Under the pieces are notes generated by a model. It had not been told where the DNA came from, did no database searches, and worked only from the letters and a program-made list of their open reading frames with translations. A DNA stretch of 55,553 nt, taken from assembly GCA_017857175.1 (NCBI GenBank), contig JAFMDS010000008.1, positions 1 to 55,553 of the forward strand, written 5' to 3'. This stretch comes from Candidatus Nanopelagicales bacterium. Lineage in GTDB: Bacteria > Actinomycetota > Actinomycetes > S36-B12. Positions 9,029 to 52,928 of the stretch are shown here, one piece after another; positions within the stretch are counted from its first letter, which is position 1, and every line of letters starts with the position of its first letter. A program made the position numbers and the translations under genes.

Positions 9029-9047
9029 AGGGTCAAGCTTTCGCTTG

Positions 9048-9225
9048 AGCGCTCGTCCCGTTACCTCGACGGTGACCGCTCGTATGTGCTAGGTGCTCCG
9101 ACTCATCAGGTGAACAAGTACCTGACACACGGTTGCGGGACAGCGCCGGATTCTCACCGAACTTCCCCTAGATTCACACACGTCGATTCAGTTGTGGGAG
9201 TACCTCACCACGGACGGGGGCCGCG
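9048..9225 (-). ncRNA. Cobalamin (B12) riboswitch
   Basis: The reverse strand carries the B12-box core GGTGAGAATCCGGCGCTGTC at 9139-9158, followed by CCGCAACCGTG. It is preceded by the GGGGAA element, and about 35 nt later comes GAGTCGGAGCACCTAGC, matching the conserved AGTCaGGAgACCtGC segment. A 6-nt kissing interaction is visible between GTCCCG (9136-9141) and CGGGAC (9055-9060), as in L5-L13 of this class. It lies upstream of the prenyltransferase-like gene and controls the operon down to the CobT-like gene at 2808. A TTGACA at 9226-9231 could be a -35, but no good -10 was found. Outer boundaries are approximate. Confidence 0.9.
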
Positions 9226-9299
9226 TGTCAACGTGAACGCGCTAATTGGTTCCATTGTTGTAAGAGTTGCCTGTCACTACCGAGACTTTTATGCAGGCG

Positions 9300-9398
9300 G
9301 GTTTGTTACTCGGCCCGTAAATTCATCGGGCCGGTTTGTTACTCGGCCCGTAAATTCATCGGGCCGGTTTGTTACTCGGCCCGTAAATTCATCGGGCC
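9300..9398. repeat. 33-bp tandem repeat, three exact copies, covering a gene's stop codon
   Basis: Copies lie at 9300-9332, 9333-9365 and 9366-9398 and are identical. Each contains an inverted repeat CGGCCCG/CGGGCCG with a 9-nt loop (the outer C and G extend across copy junctions). Each also contains the last codons and the TAA stop of the small gene at 9372-9584. The gene-proximal copy is the functional 3' end; the other two repeat it downstream. There are no spacers, so it is not a CRISPR. Confidence 0.95.
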
Positions 9399-9584
9399 GT
9401 AAACCTCGCGGTCGCCATCGAGCAGGGTCACAAACCCCACTCCGGAGGCAAGGAGTTCGCGCCACGTGTCACTTACAAATGCTTCAGCATCTGCCTGCGA
9501 TGGAAACCCTGAAGTCACGCAGGGTTCTTGCGGCTCCATGATTGGTGCCCCATCAAGGTCGGAATAGCTCCATGTCCATGCCAT
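9372..9584 (-). CDS. Small conserved actinobacterial protein of unknown function
   Basis: A 70-residue soluble protein starting MAWTWSYSDLDGAPI and ending REVYGPMNLRAE. It resembles a family of short actinobacterial proteins with a W-x-W-x-Y opening, an FPSQADAEAFV...WREL middle and a VYGPM-L ending; no function is known to me. AGAAAGGA lies 7 nt before the ATG at 9582-9584. The last ten codons and the stop fall in the third copy of the 33-bp tandem repeat. It is downstream of the aldo/keto reductase by 29 nt and probably co-transcribed. Confidence 0.75.
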   Translation of the reverse strand: MAWTWSYSDLDGAPIMEPQEPCVTSGFPSQADAEAFVSDTWRELLASGVGFVTLLDGDREVYGPMNLRAE

Positions 9585-51415: not shown

Positions 51416-52381
51416 GTGGGAATTAGCGTCGGGGTCGATATCGGTGGCACGAAAATTTTGGCCGGCTTGGTCGACGATCACGGTGAAATCCTGACCAAAG
51501 TGCGCAAGAAGACTCCAAGAGCCGATGCATTGGGTGTCCTTGAGGTCGTCGCGGAAGTTATCGATGAAACTATTGCAAATGTCGACGGGACCATTGCTGG
51601 AATTGGTGTCGCGATTGCAGGTCCTGTTGATCTATCAGGTTCGACCGTCCTTTTTGCCCCCAATTTGCAGTGGGCAGATGTTCCCGCGAGAGCGATCCTC
51701 GAGAATGCCACCAGTCTTCCCGTACTCGTGGAGAACGACGGAAATGCGGCGGCATGGGGAGAGGATGTTTTTGGCGCTGGAGCGGGAGCCAAAAACGTTG
51801 TCACGGTGACTGTTGGGACTGGTATCGGTGGAGGTGTGATCCTCAACGGCGAACTTCTTCGTGGCGCACATGGCGCCGCAGGCGAGATCGGTCACATGGG
51901 AGCTGTCGCGGACGGACTGCTCTGTGGATGCGGCCGCAAAGGGTGTTGGGAGCAGTACGCAAGTGGAAATGCGCTTGTTCGTGAAACCCGGAGACTTGCG
52001 GCCGAGAGACTGTTTGACGCTGGCATCTTGCTTTCACTCGGCGAGGGAACACCGGAGGGCATTACAGGTGAACACATCACTCAAGCGGCGATGGAAGGCG
52101 ATCCCGTTGCGTTGGCATCGTTGGAATCCCTAGGCATGTGGCTGGGTCGAGGGCTGGCCAGCCTCACCGCCGTTTTAGACCCTGAAATGTTCATTATTGG
52201 GGGCGGTGTATCCGAGGCTGGTGACCTGCTACTCAATAGTGCTCGCACAACCCTGGCCGATCGCGTAATGGGGCGGGCCTACCGCCCAATTCCGACAATC
52301 AAAGCCGCAGAACTGGGAAATAAAGCCGGCATTGTGGGAGCAGCAGATCTCGCCCGCAGGAAGTTCTCATCAATTAACTAG
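51416..52381 (+). CDS. glk: ROK-family glucokinase
   Basis: A 321-residue kinase that phosphorylates glucose with ATP. The N-terminal phosphate loop is VGVDIGGTKILAGLVDDHG, the sugar-binding and catalytic ENDGNAAAWGE block lies near residue 105, and the ROK zinc motif CGCGRKGCWEQYASGNAL is near residue 170. The GTG start is supported by the leaderless promoter and family N-terminus. No DNA-binding domain is present, so it is an enzyme rather than a ROK repressor. Confidence 0.95.
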   Translation: MGISVGVDIGGTKILAGLVDDHGEILTKVRKKTPRADALGVLEVVAEVIDETIANVDGTIAGIGVAIAGPVDLSGSTVLFAPNLQWADVPARAILENATSLPVLVENDGNAAAWGEDVFGAGAGAKNVVTVTVGTGIGGGVILNGELLRGAHGAAGEIGHMGAVADGLLCGCGRKGCWEQYASGNALVRETRRLAAERLFDAGILLSLGEGTPEGITGEHITQAAMEGDPVALASLESLGMWLGRGLASLTAVLDPEMFIIGGGVSEAGDLLLNSARTTLADRVMGRAYRPIPTIKAAELGNKAGIVGAADLARRKFSSIN

Positions 52382-52420
52382 TTGCTTGAAGTCATCGCAG
52401 GCTGGATAGTCAGATTGCTT

Positions 52421-52537
52421 CTGGTCCCGTCAAACGACGGCACCATCACGTGTCTATGTGGCATCTGGTCCCGTCAAACGACGGCACCATCACGTGTCTA
52501 TGTGGCATCTGGTCCCGTCAAACGACGGCACCATCAC
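52421..52537. repeat. 44-bp tandem repeat, 2.7 exact copies, covering a gene's stop codon
   Basis: Copies lie at 52421-52464, 52465-52508 and a partial copy at 52509-52537, all identical over the shared length. Each contains an inverted repeat CCGTC-AAAC-GACGG whose loop side includes the TGA stop of the reverse-strand gene at 52518. The gene uses the stop in the partial copy; the other two copies repeat its last codons, stop and hairpin downstream. Confidence 0.95.
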
Positions 52538-52928
52538 CGAAATCCTCGCCTGGAGGCACGTGTTTGTCTCTACGGGAGATGAGGAATGCGAAGCCACCAA
52601 TCGTTGCAACGAGCCCTGCAACTGAAACAACGGTTCCAAGACCGATGACGTAATTCCCCAGCATTGCAACCGGTCCACCTATGACTCCGGCCCACGCGAA
52701 CCTAGCGATGGCGTCATCGGGTGCTTTTATTGGCGGCGGTTCTGGCGGTTCGTAACCCTCATCAAAGTAGGCATCGATGTAGTCAGGTGATTCTGGCGCC
52801 AGTTCTTTGGGCTCAGGCTCTGGAGTGAACTGGGGTCCCAGATTCACCTGTCCGCTGAGGTCAGCCACGATTGCATCCCAGGCATTGTTCTCCTCGGGAG
52901 TGATGTCACCATCTTCGTGCTCAGGCAT
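52518..52928 (-). CDS. Small actinobacterial membrane protein of unknown function
   Basis: A 136-residue protein. The N-terminal 75 residues are acidic and Pro-rich (PEPEPKELAPESPDYIDAYF, then DEGYEPPEPPPI). Two membrane helices follow (FAWAGVIGGPVAMLGNYVIG and VVSVAGLVATIGGFAFLI) and then a short polar tail ending GDGAVV. This arrangement is common in uncharacterised actinobacterial proteins. It begins 2 nt after the hydrolase gene's stop, so the two form an operon. Its 3' end lies in the 44-bp tandem repeat. Confidence 0.75.
   Translation of the reverse strand: MPEHEDGDITPEENNAWDAIVADLSGQVNLGPQFTPEPEPKELAPESPDYIDAYFDEGYEPPEPPPIKAPDDAIARFAWAGVIGGPVAMLGNYVIGLGTVVSVAGLVATIGGFAFLISRRDKHVPPGEDFGDGAVV

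What the first reader, a model, noticed from the sequence alone, without database searches (positions are those of the whole stretch)
52421..52928. Second, unrelated gene shows the same 3'-end triplication architecture
The membrane protein gene at 52518-52928 also ends in a tandem repeat (44 bp, 2.7 identical copies). Each full copy again holds the last codons, the stop codon and an inverted repeat. The sequence differs from the 33-bp repeat, yet the layout is the same: stop inside a hairpin, about three copies, reverse strand. Two independent cases in 55 kb suggest a genome-wide process that multiplies 3' hairpins rather than chance.
Basis: partly seen in the sequence, partly recalled or inferred. 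Interest (0 to 1): 0.6.

Follow-up and report, generated by a model that had tools for sequence, protein, structure and literature searches.

The report
Tandem repeats straddling gene stop codons
In a group of uncultured aquatic actinobacteria, short stretches covering the very end of a gene, including its stop codon, have been copied head-to-tail two to five times at about 1% of genes; this looks like ordinary repeat-copying mistakes that survive because they leave the protein unchanged, and what is unusual is how often they sit on stop codons and that some persist across species.

Summary
Window 52420-52537 is a 44-bp tandem array (2.7 copies, 100% identical) that starts 17 bp before the stop codon of gene 52518-52928(-). 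Every copy carries the gene end, the stop and a hairpin. The second case (33 bp x 3.2, 9296-9399) is also real and unrelated in sequence.

In 0.85 Mb of this Ca. Nanopelagicales genome and 0.54 Mb of a relative (G010), all 10 non-coding TRF arrays of period 25-60 span a stop codon. Four other actinobacterial genomes gave 0 of 6. A looser scan gives 17 stop, 12 intergenic, 1 start.

The same gene carries different arrays in G010 (34 bp) and in another genus (27 bp). Orthologous arrays occur in related species with diverged units and different lengths, so arrays arise repeatedly and some persist.

"Multiplying hairpins" is not general: only some units fold well, the window array has no U-tract, and its unit is not dispersed.

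Best reading: VNTR-like duplication, frequent in this clade and kept where it is silent. Closest published parallel: Borg tandem repeats. A process aimed at gene ends remains possible but unproven.

The parts
52420..52537 (-). Tandem array, 44-bp unit, 2.7 identical copies, spanning the stop codon of gene 52518-52928(-)
   Evidence: TRF, 100% matches, score 236; single copy in the genome
52508..52537 (-). Core copy 1: last 17 coding bases, stop TGA, 10 bases after it; hairpin 52510-52533
   Evidence: sequence; fold -15.5 kcal/mol
52494..52507 (-). Spacer 1 (14 bp, identical to spacer 2)
   Evidence: sequence
52464..52493 (-). Core copy 2, hairpin 52466-52489
   Evidence: sequence
52450..52463 (-). 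Spacer 2 (14 bp)
   Evidence: sequence
52420..52449 (-). Core copy 3, hairpin 52422-52445
   Evidence: sequence
52518..52928 (-). Gene for an uncharacterised 136-aa protein with hydrophobic C-terminal half and conserved C-terminal -DGAVV; its stop is inside the array
   Evidence: ORF; homologs in 81 of 97 relatives; no Pfam or NCBIfam family
51416..52381 (+). ROK-family glucokinase gene, convergent with the array gene
   Evidence: PF00480 E 3.7e-84; TIGR00744 E 1.9e-95
9296..9399 (-). Second stop-spanning array, 33-bp unit, 3.2 copies, hairpin in the coding end just before the stop
   Evidence: TRF; fold in the top 1% of stop contexts
9372..9584 (-). 70-aa gene whose stop lies in the 33-bp array; the G010 orthologue has the hairpin but no array
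   Evidence: gene call; orthologue

Best explanation
The array is a locus-specific tandem (VNTR/minisatellite-type) duplication of the 3' end of a gene. Shown: in this clade of Ca. Nanopelagicales such arrays recur at unrelated genes, straddle the stop codon, start 0-28 bp inside the gene, have units mostly of 14-44 bp not tied to multiples of three, and differ in sequence and length between species. Inferred: they form by slipped-strand synthesis or unequal exchange during replication, helped where the gene end can fold back on itself. They survive at stops because the first copy keeps the last codons and the stop, and no promoter or ribosome site is displaced, whereas duplications inside genes (unless a multiple of three) or across starts are selected out. 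Once formed they keep turning over copies, so copies stay alike within a species while diverging between species. The hairpins, when present, are passengers or seeds and not a demonstrated terminator.
For: Array confirmed and single-copy. 10 of 10 non-coding arrays of period 25-60 in G000 and G010 span a stop; exact-repeat scan gives 17 stop, 12 intergenic, 1 start; repeats cross stops at 1.2-1.8% of genes but hardly ever starts. Stop arrays have periods of any remainder modulo three, in-gene arrays of period 20 or more in G000 are all multiples of three. Carriers are convergent or before gaps of at least 50 bp, never before a close co-directional gene (0 of 10, base rate 48%). Different arrays at the same gene in G010 and genus g10. 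Orthologous arrays with diverged units in G000/G010 and in G007/G010 (77-80% identical arrays of different length beside a 97% identical protein). The hairpin without array in the G010 orthologue of the 9372-9584 gene. Array-bearing stops tend to be more structured than GC-matched stops (combined p 0.02 for eight non-window units).
Against: If tolerance were all, wholly intergenic arrays of period 25-60 should outnumber stop-spanning ones about two to one by available placements; none was found by TRF in G000 and G010. Partial end copies of 19-30 bp are hard to get from simple slippage between short direct repeats. Persistence of arrays between species at about 78% protein identity is longer than expected for neutral DNA. 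No copy-number variation within a population could be tested.
Confidence: 0.6

Rival explanations
1. Selected multiplication of 3' signals: each copy is a (bidirectional) terminator or an mRNA 3'-end stabiliser, and extra copies are kept because they insulate convergent genes.
For: Hairpin stable on both strands; 6 of 10 carriers are convergent and all lie at ends of close gene runs; homologous array kept in G000 and G010; units persist in three species of genus g10.
Against: No T-tract after any copy in the window array; the arrays of the same gene in G010, G031, G115, G116 do not fold better than shuffles; most homologs of the gene have no array; convergent fraction 6 of 10 against about 30% of stops is not decisive.
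Confidence: 0.2
2. A duplication process aimed at gene ends in this clade, for example replication stalling where transcription terminates, producing tandem copies centred on the stop.
For: All long-period non-coding arrays in G000 and G010 span stops, p about 3e-4 to 6e-3 against tolerated placements; narrow range of starts 0-28 bp inside the gene; the same gene hit in several lineages with nearly the same start point.
Against: Small numbers; intergenic DNA also carries promoters, so the tolerated space is overestimated; shorter-period arrays do occur between genes (12); G031 shows 6 intergenic and 1 stop.
Confidence: 0.12
3. Metagenome assembly artefact: extra copies made by the assembler.
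For: The host is a metagenome-assembled genome in 83 contigs; no reads were available.
Against: Arrays at the same gene appear in separately assembled genomes, within contigs of 0.97 Mb (G010) and 1.42 Mb (G031); units differ by species and copies carry their own substitutions.
Confidence: 0.04
4. Dispersed palindromic element (REP/BIME, MIRU or MITE) inserted in tandem.
For: Hairpin units at gene ends in tandem resemble such elements.
Against: The array has one match in the genome; units at different genes are unrelated; each unit contains the host gene's own coding end.
Confidence: 0.02

Closest known systems
Tandem repeats of archaeal Borg elements (PMC9879509)
   Same: Locus-specific unrelated units, independent origin, flanking partial repeats, about half intergenic or with the first unit within a gene end, in-gene units in multiples of three, some units form hairpins
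   Different: Borgs are linear extrachromosomal elements with A-rich units and many in-gene arrays; here the units are not A-rich, lie on a bacterial chromosomal contig and those of period 25-60 outside genes all span stops
Bacterial VNTR/minisatellite loci, for example M. tuberculosis VNTR3239 between rnc and fpg1 (PMC2734929)
   Same: Lineage-specific tandem expansion of a short intergenic region, 37-79 bp units, copy number differs between relatives
   Different: VNTR3239 starts 40 bp after the stop and reaches a start codon; here the array begins inside the coding end
MIRU of mycobacteria (PMC12548453)
   Same: Short repeats, sometimes tandem, overlapping codons at gene borders
   Different: MIRUs are one dispersed family and insert at start codons; this unit is single-copy and stop-centred
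REP/BIME palindromes (own knowledge)
   Same: Hairpins at gene 3' ends, sometimes clustered
   Different: REPs share one sequence family genome-wide; this unit is single-copy

Membership tests
VNTR/minisatellite tandem array | Head-to-tail near-identical copies of a 10-100 bp unit | tested here: met
   44 bp x 2.7, 100%
VNTR/minisatellite tandem array | Unit is local, not dispersed | tested here: met
   one match in the genome
VNTR/minisatellite tandem array | Copy number varies within a species | not testable with these tools
   no reads or conspecific genomes; between species length and unit differ
Intrinsic (Rho-independent) terminator | GC-rich hairpin | tested here: met
   9 pairs with one mismatch, -15.5 kcal/mol
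Intrinsic (Rho-independent) terminator | U-tract directly after the stem | tested here: not met
   no terminator-like site in the array on either strand; sequence after each stem
REP/BIME or MIRU dispersed repeat | Related copies at many loci | tested here: not met
   single match; other arrays have unrelated units
CRISPR array | Unique spacers between identical repeats | tested here: not met
   both spacers are identical
Borg-type tandem repeats | A-rich units on a Borg element | tested here: not met
   44-bp unit has about 23% A; bacterial MAG contig
Borg-type tandem repeats | Partial repeat copy at the array edge | tested here: met
   2.7 copies, final spacer missing; similar fractions in the other arrays

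The most novel reading that the evidence does not exclude
In one clade of Ca. Nanopelagicales a duplication process acts preferentially at gene 3' ends, coupled to transcription or translation termination, and repeatedly rebuilds stop-codon-spanning arrays at the same genes in different species.
Probability: 0.1. Interest if true: 0.7.

Novelty: new variant of a known kind. Interest (0 to 1): 0.4.

Why it matters
Tandem repeats are usually catalogued as intergenic or in-gene. Here is a chromosome on which the long-period non-coding ones found so far all sit on stop codons, with the same gene hit in several species. If neutral, stop-straddling arrays are natural readouts of slippage that leave proteins intact and could serve as strain markers for uncultured aquatic actinobacteria. 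If not neutral, they would link gene ends to a mutational hotspot or to multiplied 3' signals. Either way, whether the bias is tolerance or targeting can be counted across a sequenced clade.

Tried and rejected
Dispersed repeat: rejected, single match in the genome. Known RNA family: only an AdoCbl riboswitch elsewhere in the window. Canonical terminator: no T-tract. My first gene caller was too weak (coding 5-90%) and its table was discarded; a retrained caller gave 85-93% coding. A general hairpin peak at stops was not found, only a mild rise 30-40 nt after the stop in G000. Homology of the 44-bp and 34-bp arrays at the same gene is suggestive only (302 of 5000 shuffles as good); homology of the 38-bp and 36-bp arrays at the 505-aa gene is better supported (29 of 5000). 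The 27-bp array of genus g10 shows no similarity after the stop and is taken as separate. Literature searches for stop-overlapping arrays and for tandem repeats in Nanopelagicales returned nothing directly on point.

Full report
WHAT IS THERE. TRF reports 52420-52537 as a 44-bp array of 2.7 copies at 100% identity. Read on the gene strand it is core-spacer-core-spacer-core, with a 30-bp core (GTGATGGTGCCGTCGTTTGACGGGACCAGA) and a 14-bp spacer (TGCCACATAGACAC). The first core is the end of gene 52518-52928(-)...GDGAVV-TGA. The hairpin TGGTgCCGTC-GTTT-GACGGgACCA is stable on both strands (-15.5 and -12.9 kcal/mol, z -4.7 and -4.6), and the whole array folds better than 200 of 200 shuffles. The other case, 9296-9399, is 33 bp x 3.2; its hairpin is inside the coding end, with the stop right after it. 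The 44-bp array occurs once in the genome.

WHERE. The window is contig 15 of a 2.0-Mb genome in 83 contigs. Relatives found in named records are mostly labelled Ca. Nanopelagicales or actinobacterium MAGs. The gene has no Pfam or NCBIfam family but is found in 81 of 97 genomes searched, 29 of 35 genera, with a conserved C-terminus D/N-GAVV-stop. It converges on a ROK glucokinase gene. In most genus members the two gene ends lie close together with no array.

IS IT A GENOME-WIDE PATTERN? I sampled 0.85 Mb of the genome and 0.54 Mb of G010, called genes with a codon-pair model and ran TRF. With period 25-60 outside coding sequence, G000 has 7 arrays and G010 has 3, and all 10 contain a complete stop codon. 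The intergenic arrays in these two genomes have shorter periods (18-24). Three of the ten were known in advance (two in the window, one orthologue), leaving 7 of 7. Random placement expects 0.88 stop arrays among the 12 arrays of the first G000 sample, against 7 seen. For 30-bp segments, the available placements stop: intergenic: start are 21784: 47626: 17459 in G000, so 7 of 7 among stop and intergenic placements has p about 3e-4. If the starting segment was longer than one unit, the stop share rises to roughly 48% (my estimate) and p to about 6e-3. Four other actinobacterial genomes (400 kb) gave 0 stop, 3 intergenic and 3 start arrays of period 25 or more. Fisher p is 6e-4 for 7:0 against 0:6; dropping the one control of period 104 gives about 1e-3 (own arithmetic). 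The three intergenic controls come from one genome, so they are not fully independent. An exact-repeat scan found 17 stop, 12 intergenic and 1 start cluster in G000+G010. Direct repeats cover about 1.2-1.8% of gene ends around the stop but almost no start codons. In G031, from another genus, the scan gave 6 intergenic and 1 stop, so the bias is not a rule of the whole order.

WHAT THE PLACEMENT SAYS. The arrays begin 0-28 bp inside the gene. Their periods are not tied to multiples of three, whereas the in-gene arrays of period 20 or more in G000 are. The carriers are at convergent ends or before gaps of 50 bp or more (the arrays themselves add to those gaps), never before a close co-directional gene, although 48% of all stops are of that kind. 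This is what purifying selection on slippage products would leave: a duplication that starts in the last codons and ends past the stop changes no protein and moves no promoter.

RECURRENCE AND PERSISTENCE. A pattern search of 166 genomes of the order found duplications of the GAVV-stop sequence in G000 (44 bp), G010 (34 bp) and three species of genus g10 (27 bp: G031, G115, G116), starting 15-17 bp before the stop. G006 has a partial 16-bp duplication there. At a 505-aa gene G000 has 38 bp x 3.8 and G010 has 36 bp x 4.6, with the same start (13 bp before the stop) and related but different units, while the other genus members whose stop region could be read have none. G000, G007 and G010 form a clade (support 0.98; about 78% protein identity between G000 and the other two). 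At a G010 gene whose protein is 97% identical in G007, the G007 array matches at only 77-80% and covers about 138 bp against 114. For the 9372-9584 gene, G010 has the hairpin (GGGCC...GGCCC) but no array, so there the hairpin came first. Arrays are therefore born repeatedly, some outlive speciation, and copies appear to be homogenised within species. The last statement is an inference from few loci.

HAIRPINS. The two window units are in the top 1-2% of structure among stop contexts of the same offset. The others range from the 5th to the 27th percentile, GC-matched from 6% to 34%. Combined over the eight non-window units p = 0.02. The 34-bp and 27-bp arrays at this very gene fold no better than shuffles. 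The conserved peptide Asp-Gly-Ala-Val is itself near-palindromic in DNA (GAC GGC GCC GTC), a ready source of a fold at this gene end. So structure may favour array birth but is not the common denominator; the stop is. No U-tract follows any copy of the window array.

COMPARISON. The closest described phenomenon is the tandem repeats of Borg elements: locus-specific, independently formed, flanked by partial repeats, about half intergenic or beginning within gene ends, with in-gene units in multiples of three (PMC9879509). M. tuberculosis VNTR3239 is a lineage-specific expansion of a short intergenic region but starts 40 bp after a stop, and its length is correlated with expression of the downstream gene (PMC2734929). 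MIRUs are dispersed and insert at start codons (PMC12548453).

VERDICT. Observation confirmed. The genome-wide claim is supported for G000 and its relative G010. The hairpin-multiplying claim is not supported in general. Most likely this is VNTR-type slippage filtered by tolerance; a modest unexplained excess on stops keeps a targeted process open.

LIMITS. 43% of G000 sampled; gene calls are my own; few arrays; metagenome assemblies without reads.

Noticed in passing
window 9046-9193 (-): AdoCbl (cobalamin) riboswitch (RF01482, 52.9 bits) lies directly downstream of the other array gene, in the same orientation.
   Followed up: no
window 52518-52928: Uncharacterised small protein family with an almost invariant C-terminus D/N-GAVV-stop across the order; such a fixed C-terminus could be a recognition or degradation tag.
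   Followed up: partly
   Followed up: no
L024, L028, L030 (genus g10), L019 (G026): Other relatives lacking the stop-spanning array have different repeats right after the same stop: 15-bp units TTTCGGTTACCGAGA, or two copies of a strong hairpin CGTTTCTCCCACCTAGTGGGAGAAACG.
   Followed up: partly
G010:C18:285365-286884 (L199, L200): The 505-aa gene in G010 is split into two hits near its C-terminus, which suggests a frameshift just before the array or a sequencing error.
   Followed up: no
G007:C392 (L012): The G007 contig ends inside what would be the first array unit of the DGAVV gene, as short-read assemblies often do at tandem repeats; the array may be present there too.
   Followed up: no
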